64,000 nt of DNA. Source: a virus. The DNA lies in IMG/VR virus record IMGVR_UViG_3300037502_002145, positions 1-64,000 of that record; one strand, given 5' to 3'. The notes below the pieces were generated by a model that saw nothing but the letters and a program-made list of their open reading frames with translations, was not told the origin of the DNA and made no database searches. A program made the position numbers and the translations under genes. Shown one piece after another: positions 4,526-54,283 of this stretch. Numbering within the stretch: position 1 is the first letter of the stretch; the number at the start of each line of letters is the position of its first letter.

Positions 4526-4602
4526 TTGAATCCTCCTAAAATAATTAATTTTGTTACTCAAGACTTTTGCCACTGCAAAAGGATTGAGAAGCGTCGCAGA
4601 CA

Positions 4603-4634
4603 TAAAAAGAGCCGACCACAATCAGCCGACTCTT
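4603..4634 (-). terminator. Terminator after endolysin
   Basis: On the minus strand GAGTCGGCT pairs with GGTCGGCTC (G-U pairs included) around a 6-base loop, followed by TTTTTA. Marks the end of the lysis operon. Confidence 0.75.
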
Positions 4635-4655
4635 AGTGTTATATTCATATCATTG

Positions 4656-5543: not shown

Positions 5544-5603
5544 AATATCATTCCTTTCATATAAATAGGAGAGTAGTACAACACCACTCTCCATAATCAG
5601 TAG

Positions 5604-5957
5604 CTATTCAGTTTTACCAGTTACAACTTCTTTAACTTTTTCATTTTTCTCTAACATTTCACGCATTTCATCTAATGCTTCATCTACCCAAAAACTAAAC
5701 ATTTCAAATGAAACCAACTTAGCAGCAACTTTAAATCTAGTGGTAAACAAATCATAAACATATCTTAGCTTTAATTGACCCGTACCAGAACCTAATTCTT
5801 TTTCTGCTAATGTAACCCAGTATAACAACATCTTCTTAATTTTTATTACTTGTTCCTTAGTTGGTAATCCAGCAAACTTATATACAGCAAATACAACTCC
5901 AAACAATAAAGCCAATAAACCAACTACTATGTACCAATTTTCAATTAACCATTCCAT
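5604..5957 (-). CDS. Phage holin, LLH-type
   Basis: 117 residues with one N-terminal membrane segment (about 7-27, WYIVVGLLALLFGVVFAVYKFA) and a long charged helical tail, the layout of the phage holin LLH family (Pfam PF09682). It would form membrane lesions releasing the endolysin. Start ATG with GAGGAATA upstream; 3 bases separate it from the next upstream membrane gene, 60 from the endolysin, so they are one operon. Confidence 0.8.
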   Translation of the reverse strand: MEWLIENWYIVVGLLALLFGVVFAVYKFAGLPTKEQVIKIKKMLLYWVTLAEKELGSGTGQLKLRYVYDLFTTRFKVAAKLVSFEMFSFWVDEALDEMREMLEKNEKVKEVVTGKTE

Positions 5958-5960
5958 AAA

Positions 5961-6224
5961 TTATTCCTCCATTTCATTAACTTGATCAATAGTTTCTTTA
6001 CCATACTTTTTTAATAACTTAATTTCGTTTTCTTTCTTTGCCTTTGAAAAATAGAATCCAGTAGCAACGGACATTTCACCAAAGACGGAAGGTATTAAAT
6101 AGGAGAGAGCAGAACTATCTCCGGTTTTCCACATTAAAGCCATACTATAAATAATTACAACAACAGTAAAAATAGTAACCATGTAAAATATCTTCTTGCT
6201 AAATTCCATCTTAGTTTTCTTCAT
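5961..6224 (-). CDS. Small two-helix membrane protein of the holin cassette
   Basis: 87 residues, two predicted membrane segments (about 10-30 IFYMVTIFTVVVIIYSMALM and 40-58) and a charged C-terminus. Abuts the neighbouring genes (0 and 3 bases), ribosome site AGGTGA. Such proteins often sit beside holins in clostridial phages and may act as a second holin or antiholin; exact role unknown. Confidence 0.6.
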   Translation of the reverse strand: MKKTKMEFSKKIFYMVTIFTVVVIIYSMALMWKTGDSSALSYLIPSVFGEMSVATGFYFSKAKKENEIKLLKKYGKETIDQVNEMEE

Positions 6225-6671
6225 CTAATCACCTATCCTAATTTCTAATTTACGTACCCTATACATCAGAGTCGAAACGTAACTATTTCCTTTCAACACC
6301 TCAGTATACATAGTGTACATTTCTTCAAGTGACTGTAATTCTAATTGATCTATATAACCCTTTTCAATTGCTCTTGTACATGTATTAACTATTGTGTGTC
6401 GTGTTTGTATCTTGTTAATTTCAAATAACGTATCAATCATAGTGGCAACATTATCTAGCTTAATTTTAACTTCTTTTATCTCTGTATCATGTTTGGTAAC
6501 AGTGGAGTGAAAATCGTCGGATTGATGTTTCTTATTGTATGCCTTAATCCATAATTCTCTTAACTTTTTACCTATCTCATATACTGCAAATATGATTGCC
6601 AATGTTACAAATATTGACTTAAAAACTTCTCCTATTGTTAATTGTGTAATATCTATTGTTAATAATTCCAT
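6225..6671 (-). CDS. Membrane-anchored coiled-coil protein of the lysis cassette (holin/XhlA-like)
   Basis: 148 residues: an N-terminal membrane helix (about 17-35, FKSIFVTLAIIFAVYEIG), then a long heptad-rich segment (about 50-90, KHDTEIKEVKIKLDNVATMIDTLFEINK) and a helical C-terminus. Size and topology resemble hemolysin XhlA-like or accessory holin proteins. It opens the lysis operon, preceded by a 317-base non-coding leader. The ribosome site GATGAGGG is very close to ATG, so the start is slightly uncertain. Confidence 0.55.
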   Translation of the reverse strand: MELLTIDITQLTIGEVFKSIFVTLAIIFAVYEIGKKLRELWIKAYNKKHQSDDFHSTVTKHDTEIKEVKIKLDNVATMIDTLFEINKIQTRHTIVNTCTRAIEKGYIDQLELQSLEEMYTMYTEVLKGNSYVSTLMYRVRKLEIRIGD

Positions 6672-6988
6672 CCCTCATCTACACCAATCCTTTCTTCTTT
6701 CATAAAATGTTACAATTTTACATTTACAATTAGTTGGAAGAGTGCTATAATGTAGCTAACACTACTCCAATAGTGTTTGGACATATATTCGTGAAGTCAT
6801 CTCCTAAGTTGAACCTCTAATATATGTCCCCTTTCAAAACTATTAAATATTTGGGCTTATATAAGCCATTAAAAATAATTAGGCAATAATTTATACCTAA
6901 ATGTATTTTAAATCGTTTTAAATAGCTTGTAGCGAATTCAGTTATGTTGCATATTGCGTAAAAATCCGTAGTCAATAAAACACCGATT
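6672..6988 (-). other. Non-coding gap with large hairpins upstream of lysis genes
   Basis: No convincing gene. It holds a perfect 11-base inverted repeat, GGACATATATT at 6779-6789 and AATATATGTCC at 6819-6829, whose 29-base loop contains a ribosome-site-like AGGAG and an ATG (plus-strand complement), and a second small hairpin ACACTA/TAGTGT at 6759-6776. It may be a structured leader or processing site between the tail fibre gene and the lysis genes. A possible 12-codon peptide starts inside the loop but its ribosome site is too close. Confidence 0.45.
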
Positions 6989-9301
6989 TTATAGTATTCC
7001 ATATATACGCACACCTTTAGTGCTTGGAGAATATGAGGCAATACCACTAGATGTTAAATTTTGCCCATTTTGCATAGATGTGGTTACAGTTTTTCCACTA
7101 TAGGAAAATCGAACTTGATATGAAATACTAGATCCATCTGAATTTATATTTTTCCAAACAGCTTGTGTTTGCGACGTTTTGTTTATAGGGAAAGACTGAC
7201 TTATACCATTAATATTTAACTCAACAACCAGCATTGAGTAATAGTCTGGATAATCAACAAGTTCAAAAGTTGTTGGTATATCACTGGTGTTGGTATATAA
7301 TACGTTGCGACCAATTATAGTGCTATTCGGGTTTGTTTTTGTAATACCCGCATGTACTGCTGATTTATTAACATCTATTTTTGATTGATTGACGTTACAA
7401 GGCTTACTTATAGCACCGCTTATTGATATTAGCCCACCGAAGTTTGCATCTATAAAGTTAGCAGTTGAACAAGTTACGTTAAGCATAGAGACGTATGATC
7501 TTTCGCTTCTAATTGCATAAGCAGATAACGGGTTATTTTGAGTTACATTTATATTAAGTAATGAAATAGTACTATCTGTTATTAAAATACCCTTAACATC
7601 GGCGCTTGACGGAGCGTTTAAATACAAAGAATCTATGCCATGTATTCTTACACCAGAATAACTACCACTGCTAATTTCAACAACTACAGCACACCCAGAT
7701 TCTATTAATGGTATTGAATTTATTGCTTGCTGTATTTCTTTAAATGGGTTGGTGGCCGTGCCGTTCATCATAACCCCATTATAAGAGTTATCGACATATA
7801 ATGTAATTATTGGATTTGGTGCTGCATTTTGATATATTTGCTTTGTCCTATCAGATGTTTGGATATTAAAATCAGTCTTAGTTATAAACGTTTCAAAAAA
7901 ATTGCGCTCATTATTGGAAGGGGTGTTCCATCCAATATAAAAATTACCCGTTCCATCATTCGTTATAAATTCGCTTTCCATCAATACATGACGTTGTAGC
8001 TTGATAGGATTTTCAAAAATCTTTTGTATTGTCATATCAATCGTATTAACACAAATGCATATGTCTGGGGAAAAACACAGCATATATAATACGTGGTCGT
8101 GATAAGTCAATCCGCACCCATTTGTGCCTGTTTTTTTAGGCAGTCCTATATTCACATCTTTGACAAAATTCATCTCATTATCTAACACCTTAATGGTTAA
8201 ATATTCATTTGTACCTGTTGTTAATACATACCATTCATTATTATCTATATTATAAGTCAATGATATGCAATTATAATTTTTTACTATAGTATTTGTAAGA
8301 GTAAAAGTAGCGTAGTCTATTACATAAATATCTGTACCAGTTGATGTTATGTATAAGTTACCTTCCTTATATTCAATGTCGTTACCATGTCCTATGGGGA
8401 GTACAGCTTCTCTTATAGTGTTACCGGTATACAAATCAATTTCCACTAATTTTTGATAATCACCAACTTCATTGATAGTTGTAGCATAACATATCACTAA
8501 TGTTTCTTGGTTATCAATTTTAACATAGCATCCACCCTGCATTACCATATAATCATCACTGTATTTTATATAGTTATACATAACATTAGTTTTAAATTGA
8601 CCTATTATCGGCAGTTGTGATTTGTTGATTTTACCATTATCACTCAATGTCGATACACCATTAGGATTTCCCTTTTCAGACGAATTTATCTTATTTAATT
8701 CCAACTCATTGACAGCCCCCACCAAATCAGCGTTTGATGTTGTTTCTAAAAGCGATAAATCACCAATTTTTTCATCTGCATAAGCAAATACATCGGTCGC
8801 TTTACCTTGTGGATCATAAATCGAGGACATCATATCGCCTCCAACACCATCTGTTCCTTTAGCAGCAATACATTTCCACCAGGTATTATCAGTGTTATAA
8901 GTTGGGGCATTACCAATTGTTTCTAAAATACATTGATATGTCCCACCTTGATCTGTAACTTTATTACCTACTTTATATGCTTTATCTGGATCATAACTTT
9001 CTAATTTTTTATACTCGTTATAAAATTCTTGTCTTACAACCTCTGCGTCCGATACATTTTGAGCAACTGTATTAGCATTTGTAGCTGCGTTATTCGCATT
9101 AGTGGTAGCAGTATTTGTTGCATTTATCGCATTAGTAGTGTTTGTTTCTCTATCTATTTCAGCTAATTGTCTTTCAGCTTCACTTAATTGTCTTTCTGAT
9201 TCTTTTTGATTTATTAAATTATTTGTTTGTATTACATTACCAATTAACCGAGGAGATATTATTTCTTTATCGCCCCAATAAACCTTTTTTATTTCTGACA
9301 T
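6989..9301 (-). CDS. Tail receptor-binding / tail-fibre protein with beta-helix region
   Basis: 770 residues. The N-terminus (about 25-95) is a coiled coil rich in Ala/Asn/Thr repeats (NATNTATTNANNAATNAN), typical of the trimeric shaft attaching to the baseplate. Residues about 100-145 (YDPDKAYKVGNKVTDQGGTYQCI...WW) resemble a small carbohydrate-binding module. The middle (about 245-480) looks like a beta-propeller of repeated DIYVIDYATFTL-like strands; residues about 500-640 have a pectate-lyase-type beta-helix pattern (ATNPFKEIQQAINSIP). It follows the BppU-like gene by 15 bases, consistent with a host-recognition protein. Precise ligand unknown; the C-terminal domain is not recognised. Confidence 0.75.
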   Translation of the reverse strand: MSEIKKVYWGDKEIISPRLIGNVIQTNNLINQKESERQLSEAERQLAEIDRETNTTNAINATNTATTNANNAATNANTVAQNVSDAEVVRQEFYNEYKKLESYDPDKAYKVGNKVTDQGGTYQCILETIGNAPTYNTDNTWWKCIAAKGTDGVGGDMMSSIYDPQGKATDVFAYADEKIGDLSLLETTSNADLVGAVNELELNKINSSEKGNPNGVSTLSDNGKINKSQLPIIGQFKTNVMYNYIKYSDDYMVMQGGCYVKIDNQETLVICYATTINEVGDYQKLVEIDLYTGNTIREAVLPIGHGNDIEYKEGNLYITSTGTDIYVIDYATFTLTNTIVKNYNCISLTYNIDNNEWYVLTTGTNEYLTIKVLDNEMNFVKDVNIGLPKKTGTNGCGLTYHDHVLYMLCFSPDICICVNTIDMTIQKIFENPIKLQRHVLMESEFITNDGTGNFYIGWNTPSNNERNFFETFITKTDFNIQTSDRTKQIYQNAAPNPIITLYVDNSYNGVMMNGTATNPFKEIQQAINSIPLIESGCAVVVEISSGSYSGVRIHGIDSLYLNAPSSADVKGILITDSTISLLNINVTQNNPLSAYAIRSERSYVSMLNVTCSTANFIDANFGGLISISGAISKPCNVNQSKIDVNKSAVHAGITKTNPNSTIIGRNVLYTNTSDIPTTFELVDYPDYYSMLVVELNINGISQSFPINKTSQTQAVWKNINSDGSSISYQVRFSYSGKTVTTSMQNGQNLTSSGIASYSPSTKGVRIYGIL

Positions 9302-25661: not shown

Positions 25662-26681
25662 TTAGTCCACAAATAATTCGTCAGATTCTTCACTGTCATC
25701 ATCCTTTATTACATAAATCTGAGTTGTTTCGCTCGAGGCATGACCTAATAGTCTTTGAGCGGCTTCAATATTCTTACCATCTTCAACAACAATTGATGTA
25801 GCACGAGCTTCTCTTAGTATATGAGGATGAAATCTTCTACCGAGCAATGGAGTAAAGATATCACTAGCCCACAAATTAAATGTAGTCCTAGATACTTGTT
25901 TTACTTCTCCTTTGTATTTAGTAACAAACATATACTCACAATCATCATCACCACGTACCTCTAACCATTTTTTAAATGCATCCATAGCATAGTCAGAGAA
26001 TTTTAACTGACGAATTTTTCCGGTTTTCCCTTGACCTTTACACCTCAATTTAGGTGTTAAATAATATTTAACTTCTTTTTCTTCTTCATTCCCATCTTCA
26101 TTTTTAACTTTTATGGTTTTAACAATTGGCTTTGCATTAATTATATCTTTTCGTATCTGCATTGTTTCTGAACGTCTACATCCAGTTTCAAAAGTAAACT
26201 TTAGATATGCAATTTTCATGTACTTATCCTTTATATCACTTTCTTCGAGTTTGTCTAACATCATTTGAAGTTCAGCTTTAGTAGGTGGGATTTTTTCATT
26301 AACAAAAGCCTTTTCAGGTTTCTTTATACCCTTATTAATAAACTGTCTAAATGTCGGGTAATCGTCTTCATAATAAAGTAGTATGTAGTTGTTCAAAGAG
26401 CTAACAGCCGCTCTTTTATTTGCTATATCAGAAGAAGAATGACCTAAATTGATAAGCCAGTTTTGATATCTTTTAAATTCTATGCTTTTAACTTCAACAT
26501 GTTTTTTATTATTTAAATTTTCTCTTACCCAATTAAACCAGATTGCTAAATTAGACTTGTAAGCCTTTAAGCTGTCATCTGATAATTCCACTGAGTTATT
26601 TATAAATTCATCTCGTAAATTTCTATTAAATTCATTACATTGTAACCATTGCTGTTCTGTTATTGGTTTTAACCTCTCCAT
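25662..26681 (-). CDS. Tyrosine recombinase / phage integrase
   Basis: 339 residues. N-terminal SAM-like core-binding domain (about 30-125) followed by the catalytic domain. Active-site residues seen: Arg I in TGCRRSE (about 170), Lys region in the beta hairpin (GQGKTGKIRQLKF), HxxR in HPHILREARAT (about 281-285), second His in LLGHASSETT (about 312) and the nucleophile Tyr in TQIYV (about 322). GGGG-type ribosome site. Located inside the tail module beside HTH regulators, an unusual place for a phage integrase, and in addition to the serine recombinase at the left. Confidence 0.92.
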   Translation of the reverse strand: MERLKPITEQQWLQCNEFNRNLRDEFINNSVELSDDSLKAYKSNLAIWFNWVRENLNNKKHVEVKSIEFKRYQNWLINLGHSSSDIANKRAAVSSLNNYILLYYEDDYPTFRQFINKGIKKPEKAFVNEKIPPTKAELQMMLDKLEESDIKDKYMKIAYLKFTFETGCRRSETMQIRKDIINAKPIVKTIKVKNEDGNEEEKEVKYYLTPKLRCKGQGKTGKIRQLKFSDYAMDAFKKWLEVRGDDDCEYMFVTKYKGEVKQVSRTTFNLWASDIFTPLLGRRFHPHILREARATSIVVEDGKNIEAAQRLLGHASSETTQIYVIKDDDSEESDELFVD

Positions 26682-37317: not shown

Positions 37318-38817
37318 TCATCGTTTATCGTTAGCCTCAGTATCACGGGTAATTTCACCAGAATCAGATAATTCATCTTGCTCAGGTCTACCAGCCTCAC
37401 TTGAACCACTTTGAGTATAAGAAGAAGATAGTGGTATCATGTTTTCTTGGAAATTAAAAACCTTTTGTTGCAATATAAAAGCACCTTCAATTTTAGAAGG
37501 TGTTATATCTAAAGCTGCTAACCATCTAGGAATTAATGGAGCACCAAAGCTACAACTTTTTTGATATCTATCTATAACTTTATCTCTGTTATATATTGTG
37601 ATATCCAATAAGAACATTGCGAATTTATAGTTCTGTTTATTGTATTTGCCTATTTTGATACATCTGTTAATCCACCTCTCAAACTGGCGATAAACTGCAT
37701 AAATAAGTCCAGAATCATTTTCAATAGAATTAGTTAATGCAGTACCACTAGAAGATCCATTAAACATTTCTTTTGAAACACCACCAGAGTTATATATGTC
37801 ATCTGTTGAATCGGCTACATTGTTTCTTGTGTTACTACTATCTTTGAAAGATATCGCCTCACCTTTTGATCCTAAAGTATGAATTATACCTATATCATCT
37901 GACATACTTTCTCTGTTTAATTCCGCAAAAACTCCTAAAGTGTCTGGTGTTAATAAAGGCTTGTCAATTGTAGAATCATCAATTGGAACTTCAACCATTA
38001 TAGCCTTATAATTATCAGTTCTAGCAGATTGCAATTTTAATTTTTTATAGGTATCTAAATCAAAAATATCCCTAACCGTTGATATAAGCAAAGGATAAGG
38101 ATAAGTTAAGTGACTATTCAATTTAATACATATTTGTTTATCTGATGGGGGTATATACCAATTAGGAATATCTCCGTTTTTATAATCTAAGTATGCTCTT
38201 TGTAAAAACTCAGGATATGCACCGATATTTATTGGATTAATAGATGACAAGTTTACTTTGTAATTAAACAACCCATCTTGTGTTTTACATAATTTACACA
38301 TTCTATTATCAAGAGGTTGTATAAAGTAATCTTGATTACTATCAAAGACAACTCCATAAAAAACATCTTGGTATGGTAATACTTTCATTATCTTTGAAAA
38401 CTCATGTTTAATATTCATTTTCTCTAGATATGAAGCTAGTGCAAAATAGTGTTTTTTTAGAGTTTCTACGTTATAATTTTCTCTAACATCATACAAGTCA
38501 ATTCCCCAATCAAATACAGCCATGTTACTAAAATATGTATTTAAACGATTGTAATGAGGTGAAATACGCATTAAAAAATCACTAGTAGAAACTAATACAT
38601 CAGACATTGAATTTGGATATTCTAATGCGTTGTTAATTTCTTCAAGTGAATAATTTCCACACCTAAATGTTTCTATGATGTTATTTACACATAAATCATG
38701 AATCATAAGCCTTTTAAACCCTGTCCAGTCAACTGGTTTATTTTCATCTATAGACTTATTAAAATTATCTTCATCGTTCTGATATGCTTTTTTAGTGTAT
38801 ATTGTTTTATTTGGCAA
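37318..38817 (-). CDS. Portal protein
   Basis: 499 residues, TTG start with GGAGGTG 10 bases ahead. Helix-rich with FLMRISPHYNRLNTYFSNMAVFDW, DLDTYKKLKLQSARTDNYKAIMVE and FNGSSSGTALTNSIENDSGLIYAVYRQFERWINRCIK, which follow the phage portal plan (clip, stem, wing). It follows the terminase large subunit. Forms the dodecameric DNA channel at the capsid vertex. Confidence 0.85.
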   Translation of the reverse strand: MPNKTIYTKKAYQNDEDNFNKSIDENKPVDWTGFKRLMIHDLCVNNIIETFRCGNYSLEEINNALEYPNSMSDVLVSTSDFLMRISPHYNRLNTYFSNMAVFDWGIDLYDVRENYNVETLKKHYFALASYLEKMNIKHEFSKIMKVLPYQDVFYGVVFDSNQDYFIQPLDNRMCKLCKTQDGLFNYKVNLSSINPINIGAYPEFLQRAYLDYKNGDIPNWYIPPSDKQICIKLNSHLTYPYPLLISTVRDIFDLDTYKKLKLQSARTDNYKAIMVEVPIDDSTIDKPLLTPDTLGVFAELNRESMSDDIGIIHTLGSKGEAISFKDSSNTRNNVADSTDDIYNSGGVSKEMFNGSSSGTALTNSIENDSGLIYAVYRQFERWINRCIKIGKYNKQNYKFAMFLLDITIYNRDKVIDRYQKSCSFGAPLIPRWLAALDITPSKIEGAFILQQKVFNFQENMIPLSSSYTQSGSSEAGRPEQDELSDSGEITRDTEANDKR

Positions 38818-38836
38818 TTTAGTATTTCACCTCCTT

Positions 38837-40537
38837 CTAATACATTTTTGGTTTATGATTTAACTTTGATAGTGATTTTGCATAATCTTGGGCATTGAAA
38901 TTATTTTTTTGTATAAAAGAAGTGTATTCTGTAATATACCATATTAAATATGCTAATGCCGAAAAACGATCCTTGTCTAATTTTTTAACAACTTTTTCCA
39001 CAGACAAAGCACCGTTATTCATATTCTTAAGTTTAAGATTAGCAATTTCTTCAAATAATAAATCTGTTTGAACATAAGGTAATATGTTTAATTCCACATT
39101 CTCTCTATCTTTTGAAGTAAAATCACCTTCTTGTTTTTTTGCTAATAATCTCAATTGTCCACTGTCAACTGAATTTATAAAATTTGTAATTACTTTGCTT
39201 TGATATGATTGGGCTTTCATGTCAAATAAACATTGTTCTGCTCCAATAGTTTCGGGCTGATTATCCGTATTCATTGTGTCCCAACAACCCAAATATTCAC
39301 CAGTTATAGGGTCATATGAATCTTTTAATAATTCATCTATAAGACCACTACCCAATCCATTACCATCGGCAATAACAGCTTTCGCATTAAAAGAATTTTT
39401 AGTCTTTTTTACAATACACGCCTGAGCTGTAAAATTCAATGAATTAGATATAGTTATTATATTTGGTATTTCTACAGACAATATTCTATTTGTATCTTTA
39501 TTTCTTATAACCCTTCCAACAGCAATGGAAGATTGGTTATTTGAACTTTTTTGAGATCTTGCAACATCGACACCAAGATAAAATTCTTCATCATTTTTAT
39601 TTTTGTTTATCATTGGAGTAGTAAGAGTCCGACATCTCATTAATTTATTAATATCAACTAACGCTCCGTCTGAACTTCCCACCCATTCTTGCTCGTAGTT
39701 TTGAGCAAAAGCAATAGGTGCGCTATTACGTTTCTTTTTAAGAATCTGACTTTTATTACTACCTCTACCAAACCAACATGGTAACATCCAATTAGAACCT
39801 AAGACTATTTGTCCTTTTAAATCACACATGTCGTCGTACATTTTTATACTTCTATAATATTCGTCTGATCCTCTAAACCCAGAAGTAGTAAAGAAGTGAA
39901 TCTGCTGATTTAATTCCTCTGGATCTACTAATCCTAATTTTCCCACAGTATATCTAGGCACTTCTGTAACAGGTTCTAATGCGTCTTCAAACAGGACATT
40001 GTTTAATAAGGCAGCTTCTTCAATTTTTAGTCTTCTTCTTCTTTGACCTTTTGTGCTTTGTGCATTTGCAATTGCATCCACAGTAGAACCATTTTTAAAT
40101 GTAATTAAAGCATCACCTTTTATAAATTTAGGCTCACACGCTAATTCATTTTCAATAAGCGGGTATTTTTTTCTAATTTCATTAAACTTAGATTTTAATA
40201 AGTCGGCTGCATTTTCTTTTGTTTGAGCAGAAATTGCCAATTCCATTTCAGGAAACAAAATTGCCACAATAACACAAGATAAAACTTCATTAAATGTCTT
40301 TGCGTAACCCCTACTAAAAACCCCGTACATATTCATAAATCGTACGTCGGTTCTTAAAAATACCCTTTGATCAAGATGAAGGTTAAAGTTACTCTTATCA
40401 GTTTTTAACAAATCGATAAATAAATCTGGATACCACCTTGCCCAACTAATAAAGTCATAGTAGTTATATAAGTTTTTACCAAACACCGTATCATCCTGAA
40501 GCTCTTGTATCCGTTTTTTTATAGACTCATCCGTCAT
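38837..40537 (-). CDS. Terminase large subunit
   Basis: 566 residues. ATPase part (about 1-300): Walker A-like segment GVFSRGYAKTFNEVLS (deviant P-loop), Walker B-like RRRRLKIEEAALL and coupling motif FFTTSGFRGS. RNase H-like nuclease part (about 320-530): catalytic Asp in YLGVDVARSQ, VIADGNGLGSG and DRFSALAYLIW. It packages DNA into proheads. Overlaps the upstream gene by 4 bases. The Walker A and B motifs are less canonical than usual. Confidence 0.9.
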   Translation of the reverse strand: MTDESIKKRIQELQDDTVFGKNLYNYYDFISWARWYPDLFIDLLKTDKSNFNLHLDQRVFLRTDVRFMNMYGVFSRGYAKTFNEVLSCVIVAILFPEMELAISAQTKENAADLLKSKFNEIRKKYPLIENELACEPKFIKGDALITFKNGSTVDAIANAQSTKGQRRRRLKIEEAALLNNVLFEDALEPVTEVPRYTVGKLGLVDPEELNQQIHFFTTSGFRGSDEYYRSIKMYDDMCDLKGQIVLGSNWMLPCWFGRGSNKSQILKKKRNSAPIAFAQNYEQEWVGSSDGALVDINKLMRCRTLTTPMINKNKNDEEFYLGVDVARSQKSSNNQSSIAVGRVIRNKDTNRILSVEIPNIITISNSLNFTAQACIVKKTKNSFNAKAVIADGNGLGSGLIDELLKDSYDPITGEYLGCWDTMNTDNQPETIGAEQCLFDMKAQSYQSKVITNFINSVDSGQLRLLAKKQEGDFTSKDRENVELNILPYVQTDLLFEEIANLKLKNMNNGALSVEKVVKKLDKDRFSALAYLIWYITEYTSFIQKNNFNAQDYAKSLSKLNHKPKMY

Positions 40538-41717: not shown

Positions 41718-42608
41718 TTAAGCACTCATACCAAATGGAAGAGTACTATCGTTTGTTTTGCTTTTCAGTTCTTCTACATATTTTCGTTTATTCTCTATTA
41801 TATCTTTTATATCTGAATCATCAACTAATTGTTTTGCATTTGGAAACATCGCTTCAAAATATTTAGACAACATAACGTGTCTTTGATATCTGTTATATCC
41901 CATATTTAAATAAGCTATATTTTGTTCTTGCAAACTCCTTATGTATTCATTATAAGTTTTATTGAGACTATCTCTTGTTATCTTGTCTTTGCAGTCTAAA
42001 TAGTGCCTTATTTCACTTGCAATCATACCAGTGCAAATCATGTTTATAGAATTTGATTCATATATCCTATCCCATTTATCAATATTTCTGTTTTGAGTTT
42101 TAACAAGATAATCGTCTAATGCTTTACACATTCTATTGAATCCTTCTTTTTCAGGATTTCTAGTTTCTTCCCATTTAATATTGTTAATAATAGCTTCTTC
42201 CATATAAATGAAATATTTTCTTGCTATTTTACTATTTTCTTTTAGTTTGTGTGATGTACGCCCACCTTTTATACCAGATACCATGGCTATTTCTTTAGCT
42301 GTAGAAATTTTTATATTATAATCTATAGTAGGTCTTCCACCAACTGGTGAGGTTTTCCCCTTTGAAGGGGAATCGATAATATAGTCAATAAACTCTTCTA
42401 AATACATATCTTCAATTTGTTGTTTTATCCATGTTGAAAAATCTCTACCAACACCCAATTGTTCATGTAGTTTCCTAGCATCAACCCAAGTATCATTATC
42501 TTCTAGTAAAATTGGTAATCTTTTTTGGTACTCCAATATTAATTGTGTCTTTTCTGCATTAAATCCTAATTGTTCTTGTAGCTGTTTTCTTGTAAATTTT
42601 TTAATCAT
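41718..42608 (-). CDS. AntA/AntB-type antirepressor
   Basis: 296 residues. Residues about 38-110 match the AntA/AntB antirepressor domain: VDARKLHEQLGVGRDFSTWIKQQIEDMYL, EEFIDY, YNIKISTAKEIAMVSGI and GRTSHKLKENSKIARKYFIYMEEA. The C-terminal half is helical and not recognised. It opposes repressors during induction. Its translation start is preceded by AAAGGAG that can be buried in a hairpin (see 42616-42690), making it a prime candidate for RNA-level control. Confidence 0.85.
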   Translation of the reverse strand: MIKKFTRKQLQEQLGFNAEKTQLILEYQKRLPILLEDNDTWVDARKLHEQLGVGRDFSTWIKQQIEDMYLEEFIDYIIDSPSKGKTSPVGGRPTIDYNIKISTAKEIAMVSGIKGGRTSHKLKENSKIARKYFIYMEEAIINNIKWEETRNPEKEGFNRMCKALDDYLVKTQNRNIDKWDRIYESNSINMICTGMIASEIRHYLDCKDKITRDSLNKTYNEYIRSLQEQNIAYLNMGYNRYQRHVMLSKYFEAMFPNAKQLVDDSDIKDIIENKRKYVEELKSKTNDSTLPFGMSA

Positions 42609-44647: not shown

Positions 44648-44833
44648 TTAAATTTCAATTTCTTCTCTTACCTGAACAGCGAGAGATATATTTGCCCCGT
44701 TAAAGTCCTTTAATAGCTCAAGTAAATTCTTTGTTTCACCCTCAACTTCAATTGTTCCGTTATCTGTATCAATAAGACCAACTGCTGATAATTTAGTAAC
44801 AGTGGTTCTTGTATATTTGAATTCTTTAGACAT
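44648..44833 (-). CDS. YonK-like small protein
   Basis: 61 residues, strong GGAGG. The pattern TVTKLSAVGLIDTDNGTIEVEGETKNLLELLKDFNGANISLAVQVREEIEI recalls YonK of phage SPbeta, where an ILSEFNGKNVSI-type end is conserved. Function unknown; it is notable as another SPbeta yon-type gene near a YonO-type polymerase. Confidence 0.45.
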   Translation of the reverse strand: MSKEFKYTRTTVTKLSAVGLIDTDNGTIEVEGETKNLLELLKDFNGANISLAVQVREEIEI

Positions 44834-45248: not shown

Positions 45249-46232
45249 TTACTCGTTTGAGCATAATAAAAGAGAGTCTTGTCGGCTCTCAATATCGATT
45301 TCAATTATTTTTTGTTGTTCTGGATTATACCTAAAATCTCCGTATTCATCAATCTCTAATTGCTGTCTAAATTTAATAGCATCTATAAAATTATCAAAAC
45401 TACCCCTAAACTTTTTTAAAATATATACGTCATACCTATTATCATTAATTTTATATATTCCCACTGGATTATCTGGTGTACAATAGGATTGTCGTTTGTT
45501 TCTGGCATTTTCAACATCAGTTGCTATTCTTAAATTAGACTTTCTACAATCATACCTAACTAAATTTTTATGATCAACATTAACATTTTCTCTGTCTTCA
45601 ATATTCATCACTACACGATGCATTCTAATGATTTTGGTTGTATATTTATCATCCTTTAAAGAATGTGCTGTTACATATTTACCATCATACCACCATGAAT
45701 AATTTTTGATTTTATAATAATCTTCTTTATCGAAGAAAAAGTGTGTTCCATTATCGCAGTAACCAACACCATATTCATAAGTATTTAGATCGTAAGTGTT
45801 ATAATTTTTAGAAGCTTCTCCCCTTGTTTCTATGTAAATACATCCGCAAGATTTAGTTTCACCGCTTCTTAATGTTTCACCACAAACAGTATGATTGTTT
45901 CCACAATCACAAATACAGTCGTACATTAATTTTTGTCTTTTTCCTGATTTTTGTTTTGATTCTTTTATAACCGTTAATCTACCAAAGCGCTTTCCTATCA
46001 TGTCAACTTTTTTAAAAGTTTTTTTAAGTTTTGCGTTGTTTTCTTTTCTTATACAGCCACAACTTTCTGTTTTATTTGTTTTTCTTAAAAGAGATTGAGC
46101 TGCTACACTTACTTTATTTCCACAATCACATTTACACATCCAGTATGTTCTTACATTAGATTTTGGATTATCGAAATCTCGATATAACACTTCAAGCCTT
46201 CCAAACTTTTTCCCAGTTAAGTCTTTAAACAT
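45249..46232 (-). CDS. HNH homing endonuclease with zinc-ribbon repeats and AP2-like domain
   Basis: 327 residues. Two N-terminal modules, each with KFGRLEVL/RFGRLTVI followed by CKCDCGN...CGC-type zinc ribbons (about 1-60 and 75-130), are DNA-recognition units. The HNH nuclease core is about 205-235 (IIRMHRVVMN, VNVDHKNLVRYDCRKSNLRIA). A C-terminal AP2-like DNA-binding segment (about 262-305, GIYKINDNRYDVYILKKFRGSF) follows. Free-standing homing endonuclease, selfish DNA in the phage. Ribosome site AGGTGA. Confidence 0.85.
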   Translation of the reverse strand: MFKDLTGKKFGRLEVLYRDFDNPKSNVRTYWMCKCDCGNKVSVAAQSLLRKTNKTESCGCIRKENNAKLKKTFKKVDMIGKRFGRLTVIKESKQKSGKRQKLMYDCICDCGNNHTVCGETLRSGETKSCGCIYIETRGEASKNYNTYDLNTYEYGVGYCDNGTHFFFDKEDYYKIKNYSWWYDGKYVTAHSLKDDKYTTKIIRMHRVVMNIEDRENVNVDHKNLVRYDCRKSNLRIATDVENARNKRQSYCTPDNPVGIYKINDNRYDVYILKKFRGSFDNFIDAIKFRQQLEIDEYGDFRYNPEQQKIIEIDIESRQDSLLLCSNE

Positions 46233-47865: not shown

Positions 47866-47911
47866 AAATTATTCCTTCTTTCTTTTTAAATTTTCTCACG
47901 ATAGGAGAGAG

Positions 47912-47995
47912 CGGAAGATGAGGGAATTGAACCCCCAGTACTGTTACGTATCACTAGATTTCAAGTCTAGCTCCTTACCATTAGGATAACCTTCC
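47912..47995 (-). tRNA. tRNA-Ser (anticodon UGA)
   Basis: Type II tRNA: acceptor GGAAGGT/ATCTTCC (one G-U), D arm TCCT/AGGA with loop AATGGTA, anticodon stem CTAGA/TCTAG with loop CTTGAAA (anticodon TGA, U33 and A37), long variable arm TAC/GTA, T arm GGGGG/CCCTC with TTCAATT loop, discriminator G as in bacterial tRNA-Ser. CCA is not encoded. Follows a terminator on the same strand. Confidence 0.92.
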
Positions 47996-48000
47996 ATAAT

Positions 48001-48026
48001 AAAAAGACTCCCATTTCTGAGAGTCC
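48001..48026 (-). terminator. Terminator upstream of tRNA
   Basis: Minus strand GACTC pairs with GAGTC around a 10-base loop followed by TTTTTA. Five bases later the tRNA begins, so the tRNA may be processed from read-through or have its own promoter. Confidence 0.6.
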
Positions 48027-48029
48027 TTA

Positions 48030-48290
48030 TTGTTGGGATTTCACTCCCTAATTGCACTATGTTGAGATTTCAGTCTCGATTCTTTGTTTAAAAACCGGTA
48101 AATGCATTACATAAACCGTGGTCTTATTCTACACATGGTAGAAAAGATAATATCTTAACTGTAAGTCCGGAGAGCATTACAGTGTGATCCGCTTTTATTG
48201 CAGTGAGCATGTTGTATTTAGCACCACACCCACTGCGAGAGGAGAGTATATGAAAATCTTATGTAGACTTGAAGTTGAATGAAAGAGATG
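48030..48290 (-). ncRNA. Candidate structured RNA(s) or decayed tRNA cluster
   Basis: About 260 bases with no open frame but several strong hairpins on the minus strand: GCAGTG/CACTGC (arms near 48193-48233), ACTGTAA/TTACAGT (about 48158-48185), AAGATATTATCTT (self-complementary) and GAGA-CTGAAA-TCTC with a neighbouring GGG/CCC arm (48040-48085). The last pair looks like a tRNA anticodon plus T arm but with a six-base loop lacking U33 and no matching acceptor, so a degraded tRNA or a novel RNA. Confidence 0.35.
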
Positions 48291-48296
48291 TTTTAT

Positions 48297-48310
48297 AGTT
48301 TTATATTAAT
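48297..48310 (-). promoter_or_regulatory. 14-base element, ATTAATATAAAACT
   Basis: Exact consensus, pointing toward the structured RNA region and tRNA. No coding gene follows for about 430 bases, so it would drive RNA genes. Confidence 0.55.
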
Positions 48311-48348
48311 ATTCTATATCATAAGTTAAGAAAAAATATAATGCGTGT

Positions 48349-48407: not shown

Positions 48408-49364
48408 TTATTGATTTTCACGTATTTTACGCATAGTTTCTGTTTTTTTCTTTCTGCGATATGTCTTATAACATTCATCACATCTTGTTTTTGTCATGTT
48501 TCTTGCATCTACTTCAACTTTTACACCACAATCAGTGCATTGTATCTCTTTGGTTTCAATAGGAATATAATATTGTTTATGCTCACTGCAATATAATATA
48601 TCATGTTTCGTTTGTTTAAATGGTTGATTACAGTGCTTACATAGTTTTATATTAATTACATTGCTGTAAAAATCATAGTACCAGCCTATATTATCAAAGT
48701 TTTTAATAGTTATACAGACGTTACAATCATTGCCTGTCTTGCTTTCTTTTAAATTATTCAAATCATCCATGAAATTTAGTTTAATTAAACCATTGAACAA
48801 TACAGTAATTATCCCTGACTGCCCAAGTGAGTATATTATATCATCATTAATTTTAATTTTATCATTAATTTTTGATGCTTTTTTTAGATCATTATATTTT
48901 TTATTTCCGCCTTTAAAATATAACCCTTTTGATTCTTCACCGTTTTTTTGTTTACTTATATGTTTATTTAATTTCATTAGACACAATAAAGTAAAAACTA
49001 CTTTTTTGCAATCGTAACTAAATTTTACAATTTCACCATCTTCGTTACATATCTGCAAAGTATCAATATAAGCAAGTTCATAATCATAAACAGTAATTTC
49101 ATCAACCTTTATTAATGCGCTACCTTTTTTGCAGGCTTGATTTATTGCTCTGTTTATAATCTTATAGTGCTTAACTTTATTATATTCAGGTATGTATTTA
49201 CTACAAAAGTTATACATGACCTCTCTCAAGTCTTTTGGTTTATAATTTAAATATCTACGTAAGTATGTAGCAACCAATCTTAATTCTGTTACAATGTGTT
49301 TAGTTTGAAACCCATTTTCGTATATCGTCTTTGCATACTCTAATTCGTTATATTTGTAGTTCAT
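48408..49364 (-). CDS. Zinc-ribbon protein encoded next to the RNA polymerase
   Basis: 318 residues; start ATG 49364, one base after the polymerase stop. The C-terminal part has two zinc sites: LCKHCNQPFKQTKHDILYCSEHKQ (about 235-258) and IQCTDCGVKVEVDARNMTKTRCDECYKTYRRKKK (about 267-300) with a basic tail. The middle (IIYSLGQSGIITVLFNG) is alpha/beta. No family recognised. Tight linkage to a single-chain polymerase suggests a specificity or DNA-binding partner, an inference from position. Confidence 0.55.
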   Translation of the reverse strand: MNYKYNELEYAKTIYENGFQTKHIVTELRLVATYLRRYLNYKPKDLREVMYNFCSKYIPEYNKVKHYKIINRAINQACKKGSALIKVDEITVYDYELAYIDTLQICNEDGEIVKFSYDCKKVVFTLLCLMKLNKHISKQKNGEESKGLYFKGGNKKYNDLKKASKINDKIKINDDIIYSLGQSGIITVLFNGLIKLNFMDDLNNLKESKTGNDCNVCITIKNFDNIGWYYDFYSNVINIKLCKHCNQPFKQTKHDILYCSEHKQYYIPIETKEIQCTDCGVKVEVDARNMTKTRCDECYKTYRRKKKTETMRKIRENQ

Positions 49365-49365
49365 T

Positions 49366-52281
49366 TTATATAGTTACCTCCTTCAATGTATAATTGTAAC
49401 CTAGATAGCTTAAATCTACTGTATCTCCAGTATTAGATTGAAATGGAAATAATACAGATGATTTATTTGTATTCTGCTTAATATTGTTGTATATTATTTT
49501 CCCATATGTAGACCACAACAAATCCTTATTACTAGAAGGCTTTTCTTTATAAAAGTAATCTACTAAACAGTTTACGATAATAATTTGATTACTACACACA
49601 TTCTTTAACCTATCGTAAAGGTTATCTGAATCAATTTTATATTCTTCGACTACATTTGATATGTCTTCAGCTTCATTTTCGTCGTCGCTTATTGATTGTT
49701 TGTCAAACTTTTTACTAACCATAAAGCTTTTTAATTCTTCTACGACTTTATCGTAATACTTCGCATATTCAAATGATTCATTTTTATACAATCTGTACAC
49801 TTCTTCATCTGTTTTAATTTTTGTGTGTTGAGATATATCAAAGTTAATCCCCTCAATATATTCGCATAATAAGTTCATAGAACTTTCACTATGTATTACA
49901 GGAGAGTGAGCATAAAAGTTATTTATAAATTCTTTTTGTATCTTAGTCTTTCTATTGAGATTTTTTAAGTCGCTAAATGGCATTTGAAATTTTTGTCTAC
50001 ATGTTATATCGTACTCTTCATAATATTTTTTATATTGTCTATTTGTGTCTTTATAAACATATCTAAAAAAATAAGGATATTTGTCTAGTAAAATGTTGTT
50101 ATACAATTGTTTTTTTCTTAATTTTCTACATTTGGTTAATTTTTTTGGATTCTTTGGTAATTTAATATAATTAACCCAAACCTTAGGGATACCCTTTACT
50201 GCCTTGCCTATTTTAGCCTTATCTATCTGAGCTGATTGAGCTTTACAGCATTGTTGAAGTCTGGACTTTAATAACTTATATTCAGTACTTTCAATACCAT
50301 ATTTTTTAATGATGTTTGGCAATAGAGCATATCCGTTACTTGATTTATTTGTTATAGACCCTATAATTGAACCAAATGAAAAAGTGTCTGATTCATATAA
50401 ATCTGCATCTGTAAATTTAATTTTCTTTGGTTTTGGAGCATCATATACGACTGGCAACTCATCTTTATAAACGTTATTCAATATACTTTTGTGAGATACT
50501 GTTGCTAAAATATCCATATCAAAATCACAGCCCGCGAAATTAACACATTCGTGACCAAAATAATTTAAAATAATTCCCAGTTCACAGTATTTATACCACT
50601 TGTTCACCTCATCGTCGTCTCTCAGGTTTAATATCACATGTTCAGACATATAGGTGAGAGGTGATCTCATTGCGTCTACTTGTTTTATATTTCTTTTGTT
50701 CCAATAATTAGAATAATATTCACCTTTTTTGAGTAAACCAGTTACTTCTAAGCCACAAACGTGTTGCATAAAGCCAAATGGATCAGATACAATAACTTGA
50801 AAATTTCCATCTACATAAATATCACCCTTACATGCGTTTTCAATTTTATGTCTAATCAAATCACGTATTTTTGAGCGTACATATTTATCACTTTTGATAT
50901 CATGATTAACAATTAAACTTTTAACTAAATAATTATCACTACTTGATAAAAAGTTGTTGATTTTATCGTTATCGTTGTTTACACCTAATAAAAATAGTAG
51001 CATGTAATAAACATTATCATAAGACACACCATTTATCCAGTCGACAAATTGACTTGCTAAATTCTCTACATCTTCTTTTGATAAATTTAATGTTTGTATA
51101 AACTGATAATTTAATTTCATCATATGCTTAGCTGCTTTTGGTGTATGAAGAGCGACCCCCCAATACAACTTATTCTTATGGCAATTATTAATGTATTCTT
51201 CCAGTGAATTGTAGCTATCCCATAATTTAAATTGTGATTCTGTAATTATAACTTCATAATCTCTTAAATCAGCTTTTATATAGTTACCATCATCACCTTT
51301 GTATATAGTGTCTACAATATAACTGCCATTATTAACTTCTTCGCAAAAATCATGAATAGGAAAAACACACAACATTCCTTTCATAAAACTTTGTCGTATA
51401 CAAAACTGAGAAGGGACATAGTCCAAACCTAAATCTTTAGCCCATATAGAAGCCTGTTTTGGAGATATTAAACCCATCCCATCAGTTCTATTCATTTTCA
51501 TATCTTTAATCTCTTTTTGTATTATGGTGTCATCAACATTCCAACCATTTTCAATTACGTAATTTGCTGTAAAGGTGTCAGTATTCTCAAAATCTTTAAC
51601 AACAATAAACTTAGGTTCACTAACAATCTTTGTCGCAGATCCGTACAAGCCAAAGTATGCATTAAATTTGCTTGGTGAAAATGATTTTTCTTTATTTCTG
51701 CCATTATCAAGTCTTTCTTTTACTAAATCAATTATTTCCGTATTGCAGAATATAACAGTAGATACTCTAGCTTGACTAGCAGAACAACTTAATCGTTTAT
51801 ATTCCTTGCCATTAATTATGAATCCGTTTTTATAGAGGTGGTCATATTGTTTTAGATTATCCATCACTACAACAACATAATCTTCAATAAACATTGTACG
51901 ATTAATTTTATCTTGAATTCTTTGAGCTTCATTGTTATAAACAGTTACGTCAAGGTACTTATTTTTCAATCTTTCAATTATCTTAGAATTGTTATTTACT
52001 TTTTTTATTTTGTTATTTATGATTTCTGTATATTTATTGTTTCTTTGTTGATATGTATTAGAATATTTATAATGATCACGAATTTTTATCAATAACTCTA
52101 TTTTTTTTCTGTCTACGCACTTATTTCTTATATCTCTTATAGTGCGTAGTATCTGATTATCAGAAAGTCCTATTATTTCTTTAAGATCTTTTGATTCATT
52201 AAATGTATTATTAATATTGTAGTCAAATTCTTTTAATCTACCTGAATGAAATTTACGCACATATAATGGTCTATTTGTCAT
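49366..52281 (-). CDS. YonO-type single-chain RNA polymerase (two-barrel class)
   Basis: 971 residues from ATG 52281 (GGAGG 8 bases ahead; a TTG 15 bases earlier is not needed). The signature is FAGCDFDMDILATVS, with Asp586, Asp588 and Asp590 as the catalytic metal triad of the DxDxD motif that is DFDGD in YonO and beta-prime subunits; here the Gly is Met. Flanking segments also fit: SDPFGFMQHVCGLEVTGLLKKGEYYSN before, RSPLTYMSEHV, FGSIIGSITNKSSNGYALLP and QIDKAKIGKAV after, all typical of YonO/QDE-1-like enzymes. YonO transcribes late SPbeta genes from DNA. The motif divergence makes activity worth testing. Confidence 0.82.
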   Translation of the reverse strand: MTNRPLYVRKFHSGRLKEFDYNINNTFNESKDLKEIIGLSDNQILRTIRDIRNKCVDRKKIELLIKIRDHYKYSNTYQQRNNKYTEIINNKIKKVNNNSKIIERLKNKYLDVTVYNNEAQRIQDKINRTMFIEDYVVVVMDNLKQYDHLYKNGFIINGKEYKRLSCSASQARVSTVIFCNTEIIDLVKERLDNGRNKEKSFSPSKFNAYFGLYGSATKIVSEPKFIVVKDFENTDTFTANYVIENGWNVDDTIIQKEIKDMKMNRTDGMGLISPKQASIWAKDLGLDYVPSQFCIRQSFMKGMLCVFPIHDFCEEVNNGSYIVDTIYKGDDGNYIKADLRDYEVIITESQFKLWDSYNSLEEYINNCHKNKLYWGVALHTPKAAKHMMKLNYQFIQTLNLSKEDVENLASQFVDWINGVSYDNVYYMLLFLLGVNNDNDKINNFLSSSDNYLVKSLIVNHDIKSDKYVRSKIRDLIRHKIENACKGDIYVDGNFQVIVSDPFGFMQHVCGLEVTGLLKKGEYYSNYWNKRNIKQVDAMRSPLTYMSEHVILNLRDDDEVNKWYKYCELGIILNYFGHECVNFAGCDFDMDILATVSHKSILNNVYKDELPVVYDAPKPKKIKFTDADLYESDTFSFGSIIGSITNKSSNGYALLPNIIKKYGIESTEYKLLKSRLQQCCKAQSAQIDKAKIGKAVKGIPKVWVNYIKLPKNPKKLTKCRKLRKKQLYNNILLDKYPYFFRYVYKDTNRQYKKYYEEYDITCRQKFQMPFSDLKNLNRKTKIQKEFINNFYAHSPVIHSESSMNLLCEYIEGINFDISQHTKIKTDEEVYRLYKNESFEYAKYYDKVVEELKSFMVSKKFDKQSISDDENEAEDISNVVEEYKIDSDNLYDRLKNVCSNQIIIVNCLVDYFYKEKPSSNKDLLWSTYGKIIYNNIKQNTNKSSVLFPFQSNTGDTVDLSYLGYNYTLKEVTI

Positions 52282-52367: not shown

Positions 52368-52381
52368 AGTTTTATATTAGT
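52368..52381 (-). promoter_or_regulatory. 14-base element, ACTAATATAAAACT, upstream of the polymerase gene
   Basis: Exact consensus, overlapping the stop of the 52372 gene; the polymerase leader peptide starts 37 bases downstream. Suggests the polymerase could drive its own gene. Confidence 0.55.
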
Positions 52382-52638
52382 TTCGTTTTAGCTTGTTCTT
52401 CTAAAACCTTAAAAATATAATTTACTTTTCCATATGAACTTGTGATAGTAGCAATTCTTTTAATTAAATATGATTTATAATCTTCATAAATGGTCAATAA
52501 AAGAGATAAATCATAATTTTGTGTTAAAATTTTTATTTTCTTACCAACGTATCCATTCAGTGCCGTATTATTATTTAATAATTCCTCTATAATACCCTTA
52601 TGTAGTTGAATTCTTAATTCTTTATTTACGTTATCCAT
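52372..52638 (-). CDS. Unknown small helical protein
   Basis: 88 residues, GGAGAG ribosome site. Helical, e.g. LRIQLHKGIIEELLNNNTALNGY and IYEDYKSYLIKRIATI. No family recognised. Lies between helicase-like and polymerase genes, preceded and ended by copies of the 14-base element. Confidence 0.5.
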   Translation of the reverse strand: MDNVNKELRIQLHKGIIEELLNNNTALNGYVGKKIKILTQNYDLSLLLTIYEDYKSYLIKRIATITSSYGKVNYIFKVLEEQAKTKLI

Positions 52639-52651: not shown

Positions 52652-53866
52652 TTAATGTTTTATATTAGTGCCGTTAGATACTTCATCAATCCATTGTATA
52701 AGTAGTTTTCTCATTCTACTACTTGGTATGTATAACCAAATTTCTTTATTTTCTCTTATTGCAGATCTCCATATAAACTGTAGCATTTCACTTACGGCAT
52801 AAGCATCTTCCTCAACAGTAATACCATTCTGTGTAAAGAAATTCTTAATGCAAGGATTAAAATATTTGTTAATCAAGTAAGCAACAGCAATTCTATCTCT
52901 ATATTCATTTGTTGCTCTAACATTGGAAGATACAAAGCCTTTGGCATAACCTTTACCTGCTACCAATGGTTTAAATTTTTTGAACGTAGTCCATAAGTTT
53001 TCACTTGATTTTGTTTTTGTATAATTCTTAAAATAATTACCGGTTGCATTCTTTAGTTGTTTCATTAATTGATTATTCTGATTCCTTAAATACCAAGTTT
53101 TTGAGAGGGATGATTCCATATCTCCTATACGATTAAGCTTTGCATTATCGCAAATATGTATTAATTTATTATAATCAGGTACTTTGTAATCAACAACCTC
53201 AGTAGTAAACTCATAGTTGTTTATATTGTCGCCCTTAATGTACAAATATGTATACTCAACCCCGTAGTAGTCATAGTAATACTTTTGAGTTTGAGCATTG
53301 AACATGTAGGTTAATATATAAATATTTCTAAATGCTCTAAAAGTAGTAATAGGGAACAACCACAACATAGCAACATCACTATATATGGCTAAACAATGTA
53401 AATCACATAACCTTTTTTCATCTTGAAATTTACCATCGTAATCTTTAGCATGCCAATTTAATAATCCATTCTCATCAACATGAACATATTTGTCTAGCAT
53501 AGTGTTTAAATCATCTTTAGATATCTCGTATGGTTCTATGACATCAGCCACCTCATCCATAATTAACGTATAATTATTAGCATAAGCAAGATCAATTATT
53601 TCTTCATCAAACATACTAAACAGTGAATGAGTAGATACAATATTGTATCCTTTCTCAAACAGATGTTTAATACCATTTAATTTACTTCCATATGTCTCTG
53701 GTTGTTTAAAATTTTTATTAACACAACTAGTCATTATTCTTTTTACTTCTGTCAGATATGGGGTTATGTATAAAAACTTTACATCATCATCTGAATTGTT
53801 AATAAAGTTTATACTACTGCTGGTCTTACCAGCTCCCATAACTGCATCAATTACATTTACATTCAT
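52652..53866 (-). CDS. Superfamily 2 helicase-like P-loop ATPase
   Basis: 404 residues. Walker A MGAGKTSSSINFI at residues about 9-22, motif II YTLIMDEVADVIEPY (DEVAD, near 105), and a final helical part with AYLINKYFNPCIKNFF. Too short for a full two-domain helicase but of the type found as phage helicase genes next to polymerases. Leads the operon with the 14-base elements and the polymerase. Ribosome site AAAGGAG. Confidence 0.7.
   Translation of the reverse strand: MNVNVIDAVMGAGKTSSSINFINNSDDDVKFLYITPYLTEVKRIMTSCVNKNFKQPETYGSKLNGIKHLFEKGYNIVSTHSLFSMFDEEIIDLAYANNYTLIMDEVADVIEPYEISKDDLNTMLDKYVHVDENGLLNWHAKDYDGKFQDEKRLCDLHCLAIYSDVAMLWLFPITTFRAFRNIYILTYMFNAQTQKYYYDYYGVEYTYLYIKGDNINNYEFTTEVVDYKVPDYNKLIHICDNAKLNRIGDMESSLSKTWYLRNQNNQLMKQLKNATGNYFKNYTKTKSSENLWTTFKKFKPLVAGKGYAKGFVSSNVRATNEYRDRIAVAYLINKYFNPCIKNFFTQNGITVEEDAYAVSEMLQFIWRSAIRENKEIWLYIPSSRMRKLLIQWIDEVSNGTNIKH
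52656..52669 (-). promoter_or_regulatory. 14-base element, ACTAATATAAAACA
   Basis: Lies across the end of the helicase-like gene and directly before the AAAAGGAG ribosome site of the 52372 gene, one base from consensus. Confidence 0.5.
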
Positions 53867-54253: not shown

Positions 54254-54283
54254 ACTATATCATACCAATGATTAGGTTGTCAA
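54254..54283 (-). promoter_or_regulatory. Leftward sigma-A promoter bracketed by 14-base elements
   Basis: On the minus strand TTGACA (54278-54283), 18-base spacer, TATAGT (54254-54259). Elements at 54285-54298 (adjacent to the -35) and 54232-54245 flank it, so regulation or dual promoters are possible. Confidence 0.65.

What the first reader, a model, noticed from the sequence alone, without database searches (positions are those of the whole stretch)
49366..52281. Phage-encoded single-chain RNA polymerase with a DFDMD catalytic triad
A 971-residue protein carries the DxDxD metal triad of two-double-psi-beta-barrel RNA polymerases (Asp586, 588, 590) with flanking segments matching YonO/QDE-1-like enzymes. 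The usual Gly of DFDGD is Met. It lies in a leftward operon with a helicase-like ATPase and a zinc-ribbon protein, near a YonK-like gene. Such polymerases are known in SPbeta and some gut phages, but this variant and its gene partners appear undescribed.
Basis: partly seen in the sequence, partly recalled or inferred. Interest (0 to 1): 0.86.

Follow-up and report, generated by a model that had tools for sequence, protein, structure and literature searches.

The report
Phage RNA polymerase with partner protein
A temperate bacterial virus carries its own one-piece RNA polymerase of the known YonO kind; what is new is that this branch comes with a separate zinc-ribbon partner protein (fused to the enzyme in the SPbeta branch), and that a unique DNA signal sits right after the pair where the late genes begin, a candidate for the start signal that the literature says is still unknown.

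Summary
The finding holds. The 971-aa protein (49366-52281, -) is a two-barrel polymerase: Pfam PF05183 E 4.7e-17, SPbeta YonO (24% identity; profile E 3.5e-63, triad aligned), and an AlphaFold model (pLDDT 89) whose only significant PDB matches are plant RDR2 and fungal QDE-1. [quoted passage not shown] DFDMD is not unique: a supported clade of 16 relatives has Met, Tyr or Phe for the Gly. The helicase-like gene is a YonV homologue, not a fixed partner. The zinc-ribbon gene is one: 33 of 56 non-redundant relatives have it beside the polymerase; 21 others (YonO branch) instead carry a zinc ribbon at the polymerase C-terminus, and the two ribbons match (E 1.7e-7). Just after the companion lies a single-copy element, TTTTCTTAACTTATGATA (48315-48334, -), the best site in the whole genome and in the same place in seven related phages; the YonO branch has a different element in the same position. 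I read it as the late promoter of this polymerase. Inferred, not shown: the published SPbeta start site, mapped here, lies ~790 bp downstream of the SPbeta counterpart.

The parts
49366..52281 (-). single-chain two-barrel RNA polymerase (YonO-like, 971 aa; catalytic Asp586/588/590, DFDMD)
48408..49364 (-). companion protein (318 aa): mostly helical N-terminal ~200 aa of unknown fold, zinc ribbon(s), basic C-terminal helix; adjacent to the polymerase in 33 of 56 non-redundant relatives
48315..48334 (-). candidate late promoter element TTTTCTTAACTTATGATATA, single copy in the 115.9-kb genome
48349..48370 (-). hairpin element AACCCTTGATTTTACTGGGTTT just upstream of the candidate promoter; other copies only at 3751 (+) and 54005 (-); terminator or operator
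54254..54283 (-). host sigma-A-like promoter TTGACA-18-TATAGT with TG (11 of 12), about 390 bp upstream of the polymerase operon; consensus match only
52652..53866 (-). YonV-like P-loop ATPase (PHROG_2467), first gene of the polymerase operon; not a fixed partner
52372..52638 (-). 88-aa ORF between ATPase and polymerase, no relatives found in the loci
48003..48028 (-). intrinsic terminator-like hairpin closing a structured non-coding stretch (about 48340-48003) before tRNA-Ser
47911..47995 (-). tRNA-Ser (TGA), first gene after the candidate late start
44648..44833 (-). YonK-like protein, 61 aa
43410..44633 (-). YonJ-like exonuclease/metallophosphoesterase (PHROG_284), 34% to SPbeta YonJ
37318..40537 (-). 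portal (PHROG_2739) and terminase-like genes of the late operon

Best explanation
The gene encodes a phage DNA-dependent RNA polymerase of the YonO kind. Host RNA polymerase makes the operon ATPase - small ORF - polymerase - companion (inferred from a strong sigma-A-like site at 54283-54254). Polymerase and zinc-ribbon companion then act together: they recognise the single element TTTTCTTAACTTATGATA right after the companion gene and transcribe the long leftward late operon (tRNA, PhoH, YonK, YonJ, terminase, portal, tape measure, fibres, to about 2.4 kb). The zinc ribbon plus basic tail is a nucleic-acid-binding module that YonO carries in cis and this branch supplies in trans. Shown here: family membership, predicted fold, conserved companion, cis/trans exclusivity, the conserved single-copy element. 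Inferred: RNA synthesis on DNA, physical partnership, promoter function, late timing (by analogy with YonO, PMC5467207).
For: Fold and family: (21 of 21 PDB matches at E<=1e-3 are RDR2/QDE-1, best 3.9e-19). YonO, same family, is a DNA-dependent RNAP needed for late genes (PMC5467207). The gene order RNAP - (companion) - HU - YonK - YonJ - terminase - portal, or most of it, is shared with SPbeta, BUCT082, plaBV1, Thomasclavelia and Psychrobacillus phages. Companion adjacent in 33/56 non-redundant relatives, zinc ribbon in cis in 21/56, never both, 2 with neither; the cis form has one origin on the tree, SH-aLRT 99; companion profile matches the YonO-branch C-terminus, E 1.7e-7. Element: LLR 115 against shuffles 59 +- 2.7, max 64; leave-one-out matrix puts the site first in the 115.9-kb genome (26.7 bits, next 12.5) and first in all 8 phages; best match over whole records in most relatives. 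No sigma-70 pair overlaps it. SPbeta-backbone phages with this polymerase type lack the YonO-branch element and keep a diverged T-run + TTATGGTA at the same place, so the element follows the polymerase.
Against: No experiment on this enzyme. The published YonO start site (2225998) maps, by anchors in PMC10516654 and assuming that strain SP1 and 168 numbering agree, to L005:12124, about 790 bp downstream of the YonO-branch element and after yonN, so the elements next to the polymerase genes may not be the main late promoters. TATGAT resembles a -10 box. The companion has no PDB fold match, and its being a DNA-binding initiation factor is inference. The relatives share ancestry, so shuffles overstate the independence of the motif. 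L008/L069 phages have a companion-like gene without a zinc ribbon.
Confidence: 0.65

Rival explanations
1. The polymerase is a late RNAP as above, but the conserved element is not its promoter: it is a host (sigma-A or other sigma) promoter, an operator, or part of a terminator/processing site, and the polymerase starts further downstream, as published for SPbeta.
For: Published SPbeta start site maps about 790 bp downstream of the corresponding element; TATGAT is -10-like; a hairpin element lies directly upstream; jumbo-phage late promoters can be very short (TATG) and hard to predict.
Against: No -35 at 16-18 bp and no sigma-70 match; element differs with polymerase clade at the same position; sequence around the published start is 97.5% identical in BUCT082 although its polymerase belongs to the other branch, which is odd for a polymerase-specific promoter; a 5' stem starts right at AGGG in 18 of 19 YonO-branch phages.
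Confidence: 0.35
2. The enzyme is an RNA-dependent RNA polymerase (as Pfam and several GenBank records name it) that copies phage or host RNA, for example for RNA-level regulation.
For: Pfam name RdRP and closest solved folds RDR2/QDE-1; records annotate relatives as RNA-dependent RNA polymerase.
Against: YonO, the characterised phage member, strongly prefers DNA templates (PMC5467207); location at the head of the late operon.
Confidence: 0.08
3. The companion is not a polymerase factor but an unrelated late-gene regulator or nucleic-acid-binding protein that is merely kept next to the polymerase.
For: No fold match, weak and varied zinc-ribbon hits only.
Against: Adjacent or overlapping in all members of its clade that could be checked, exclusive with the cis zinc ribbon, and similar to it in sequence; exchanged together with the polymerase in BUCT082.
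Confidence: 0.2

Closest known systems
YonO of Bacillus phage SPbeta (Forrest et al. 2017, PMC5467207)
   Same: Single-chain two-barrel polymerase with DxDxD, homologous over about 675 columns; same place before the yonK-yonJ-terminase genes
   Different: 24% identity; YonO has DNDGD, a C-terminal zinc ribbon in cis and no companion; different conserved element after the gene
UAW07825.1 of Bacillus phage BUCT082 and WP_029974518.1 of B. velezensis plasmid plaBV1
   Same: Same clade (46% identity), companion gene next door, non-Gly motif DFDYD
   Different: Annotated only as hypothetical proteins; sit in an SPbeta-like backbone; upstream gene is CoiA-like, not YonV-like
Eukaryotic RNA-dependent RNA polymerases QDE-1 and RDR2 (PF05183)
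   Same: Same predicted fold over most of the chain and same Pfam family
   Different: DxDGD motif, RNA silencing role, no phage operon
Jumbo-phage multisubunit nvRNAPs (phiKZ, AR9; PMC7598289, PMC9209446)
   Same: Phage two-barrel RNAP for late genes; AR9 uses a dedicated non-sigma promoter-specificity subunit, the analogue proposed for the companion
   Different: Split beta/beta' subunits; no sequence relation between companion and AR9 gp226 was tested

Membership tests
YonO-like single-chain two-barrel RNA polymerase | Significant profile match to YonO/RdRP family over both barrels | tested here: met
   PF05183 E 4.7e-17 residues 103-717; profile-profile E 3.5e-63 with YonO branch
YonO-like single-chain two-barrel RNA polymerase | Catalytic Asp triad DxDxD | tested here: met
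   D586/588/590 invariant in 40 sequences
YonO-like single-chain two-barrel RNA polymerase | Gly in DxDGD (usual, but not defining: a whole clade of the family lacks it) | tested here: not met
   Met here; Y/F/M in its whole clade, Gly in YonO branch and RDR2
YonO-like single-chain two-barrel RNA polymerase | Two-barrel fold as in QDE-1/RDR2 | tested here: met
   AF2 pLDDT 89.2, pTM 0.83; Foldseek E 3.9e-19 to 7w82, TM 0.46 to 7y7t_B; convergence of the three Asp not measured
YonO-like single-chain two-barrel RNA polymerase | DNA-templated RNA synthesis | not testable with these tools
   Shown for YonO only
SPbeta-type (cis zinc ribbon) branch of YonO-like polymerases | C-terminal zinc ribbon in the polymerase | tested here: not met
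   No CxxC in the last 70 residues; ribbon in the adjacent gene instead; so it is in the family but not in this branch
Spbetavirus-like late module | RNAP - HU - YonK - YonJ - terminase - portal order | tested here: inconclusive
   RNAP, YonK-like, YonJ-like, terminase and portal found in that order; no HU gene identified between companion and YonK
Sigma-A (host) promoter at the late element | -35/-10 hexamers with 16-18 spacing | tested here: not met
   No site listed at 48315-48334

The most novel reading that the evidence does not exclude
YonO-type polymerases need a dedicated, non-sigma initiation factor: the zinc-ribbon companion in this branch, reduced to a C-terminal zinc ribbon in the SPbeta branch. 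Factor and polymerase read a branch-specific, single-copy promoter next to their own genes, and polymerase, factor and promoter travel between phages as one cassette.
Probability: 0.35. Interest if true: 0.82.

Novelty: new variant of a known kind. Interest (0 to 1): 0.62.

Why it matters
YonO-like enzymes are thought to resemble the single-chain ancestor of cellular RNA polymerases, and the 2017 paper left open which promoter they read and whether they need other factors (PMC5467207); I found no later answer in the papers searched. This window and its relatives give concrete, testable candidates for both: a 20-bp element and a partner protein. The cis/trans zinc ribbon and the apparent swap of the polymerase cassette in BUCT082 would show how such polymerases gain and change specificity, and a small orthogonal polymerase-factor-promoter set would be useful as a tool.

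Tried and rejected
phmmer of the single sequence against PDB found nothing; only the family profile did. Single-sequence search of viral contigs found one relative; the 8-sequence alignment found 80. Companion: no Pfam family, no PDB fold, only weak zinc-ribbon hits; a weak PriX resemblance in both Pfam and Foldseek was not pursued because E-values are poor. I first took the YonV-like ATPase for a partner; it occurs in 32 loci but often in the opposite orientation. Rfam: only the tRNA at the structured RNA; the closest relative L013 lacks that stretch, so no covariation test was made. The same motif search in the distant companion-bearing group (L055-L070) found only the hairpin, not a promoter-like element.

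Full report
Check of the observation. The ORF 49366-52281 (minus) is open over 971 codons, starts at an ATG with a GGAGG ribosome site, and carries C-DFDMD at Asp586/588/590. Pfam RdRP (PF05183) matches at E 4.7e-17 over residues 103-717; PHROG_8308 at 6.5e-153. tblastn finds 35 phage records, from Bacillus phage BUCT082 (46%) down to SPbeta YonO (24%, E 2e-20), and four plasmid records. The window is part of a 115,871-base virus record.

Fold. An alignment of 40 relatives (A3) keeps all three Asp invariant. The AlphaFold2 model has mean pLDDT 89.2 and pTM 0.83. All 21 PDB matches at E<=0.001 are plant RDR2 or fungal QDE-1 (best 3.9e-19); the family profile also hits these by sequence, with the DxDxD block aligned. 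Profile-profile comparison of the window's clade with the YonO branch gives probability 100, E 3.5e-63 over 675 columns, DFDMD against DNDGD. I could not measure the distance between the three Asp.

The DFDMD variant. Of 80 viral loci, the window's near relatives have DFDYD, DVDYD, DYDFD, DWDMD or DFDMD; the others have DxDGD. On the tree 16 non-Gly sequences form one supported group (SH-aLRT 99) that holds the window; one more (L052) lies just outside. So the Met is one state of a clade trait, not an oddity, and the triad is intact.

The partner. In the window a 318-aa protein with zinc-ribbon cysteines begins one base after the polymerase stop. The same companion is adjacent (overlapping or within 12 bases) in 33 of 56 non-redundant relatives; 21 of the others, all one branch with SPbeta YonO, have a C-terminal CxxC zinc ribbon in the polymerase itself and no companion; two have neither; none has both (Fisher P 1.9e-13, which ignores relatedness; tree: one origin of the cis form). 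The companion profile matches the YonO-branch C-terminus with E 1.7e-7 exactly over zinc ribbon and basic tail, and its HMM finds three YonO-branch polymerases on its own. I conclude that the module is supplied in trans here and in cis in SPbeta. The companion model is confident (pLDDT 91.6; mostly helical N-terminus, then the ribbon) but has no PDB match, so what its N-terminal 200 residues do is unknown.

The late element. After the companion gene, otherwise unalignable intergenic DNA of eight related phages shares TTTTCTTAACTTATGATA 20-75 bases past the stop codon. Motif search over 15 loci gives a log-likelihood ratio of 115 against 59 +- 2.7 (max 64) in shuffles. A matrix built without the phage being tested ranks this site first in all eight; in the window's whole 115.9-kb genome it scores 26.7 bits against 12.5 for the next. 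Whole-record scans agree: the site is the best match (in L020 a tie) in every relative, other matches being at control level. No sigma-70 hexamer pair falls on it, whereas an 11-of-12 site with extended -10 lies at 54283-54254 upstream of the polymerase operon. In the YonO branch the polymerase-to-HU gap holds a different element, ATAATCGTCTTTAAGGGAA (log-likelihood ratio 186 against 70 +- 2.9; first in 16 of 19 loci by leave-one-out), and the RNA that would start at AGGG folds its 5' end into a stem in 18 of 19 loci against 8.0 expected.

A natural exchange. BUCT082 and relatives have SPbeta-like non-coding DNA and late genes (95% identity downstream of HU) but a polymerase-companion pair of the window's clade. 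Their gap lacks the YonO-branch element and has a T-run plus TTATGGTA at the place of the window's element. The element follows the polymerase, not the backbone.

Against. The YonO start site was published as 2225998 in B. subtilis 168. Three mutations listed with coordinates in PMC10516654 fix chromosome = 2,286,453 - record coordinate for NC_001884, which puts the published start at L005:12124, the first base of a long stem, about 790 bases past the SPbeta element and past yonN. Either the late operon has its start there and the elements have another role, or that end is a second start or a processed end. The 121 bases around it are 97.5% identical in BUCT082 with its very different polymerase, which argues mildly against a polymerase-specific promoter there. 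SP1 and 168 numbering are assumed equal.

Setting. The phage looks temperate: serine integrase 720-2327, and ParM-like, FtsK-like and replication-relaxation-like genes rightward from 54.6 kb; structural genes run leftward from 48 kb to 2.4 kb. This fits one late operon starting at the element, as in SPbeta.

Novelty. The family, its activity in SPbeta and its presence in several phages are known (PMC5467207, PMC7824862). The companion, the cis/trans zinc ribbon and the candidate promoters are not described in the papers I could search; many subscription papers were not searchable.

Noticed in passing
L064:9620-10669, L065:6219-7261 (same in L074), L066:6963-9403, L007:2093-3033, L113 near 6600-7490: Polymerase genes of at least five phages/prophages are interrupted exactly at or next to the DxDxD codons by intervening sequences, four with HNH-type ORFs; sub-threshold group I intron matches in L065 (E 2.5e-5) and L113 (E 0.0013), none in L007 and L064. 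The catalytic motif seems an intron hot spot.
   Followed up: partly
window 47990-48340 (-): Non-coding stretch after the candidate promoter folds better than shuffles (z -3.9) and ends in a terminator-like hairpin before tRNA-Ser; absent from the closest relative L013, no Rfam family.
   Followed up: partly
window 3751 (+), 48349 (-), 54005 (-): Three near-identical hairpins AACC-TTGATTTTACT-GGTT, only these in the genome: near the end of the late operon, before the late element and before the polymerase operon; similar CCCTTG...GGG hairpins in SPbeta after yonO and near yonX. Terminator or repressor (SPBRE/MrpR-like) site, undecided.
   Followed up: partly
L003 (BUCT082) 1716-7243 versus L005 (SPbeta): The polymerase-companion-HU cassette appears exchanged between SPbeta-like phages while flanking non-coding DNA stays 95% identical.
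   Followed up: partly
L008 3798-4427, L069 10282-10902: Thomasclavelia-type phages have a short companion-like gene without zinc ribbon next to a polymerase that also lacks one: possible independent loss.
   Followed up: no
window 25662-26681 (-), 45249-46232 (-), 2452-3654 (-): A tyrosine recombinase gene inside the tail region of the late operon, and HNH/homing-endonuclease-like genes within or at the end of the late operon.
   Followed up: no
window 41718-42608 (-): AntA/AntB antirepressor-domain gene inside the late operon beside the terminase genes.
   Followed up: no
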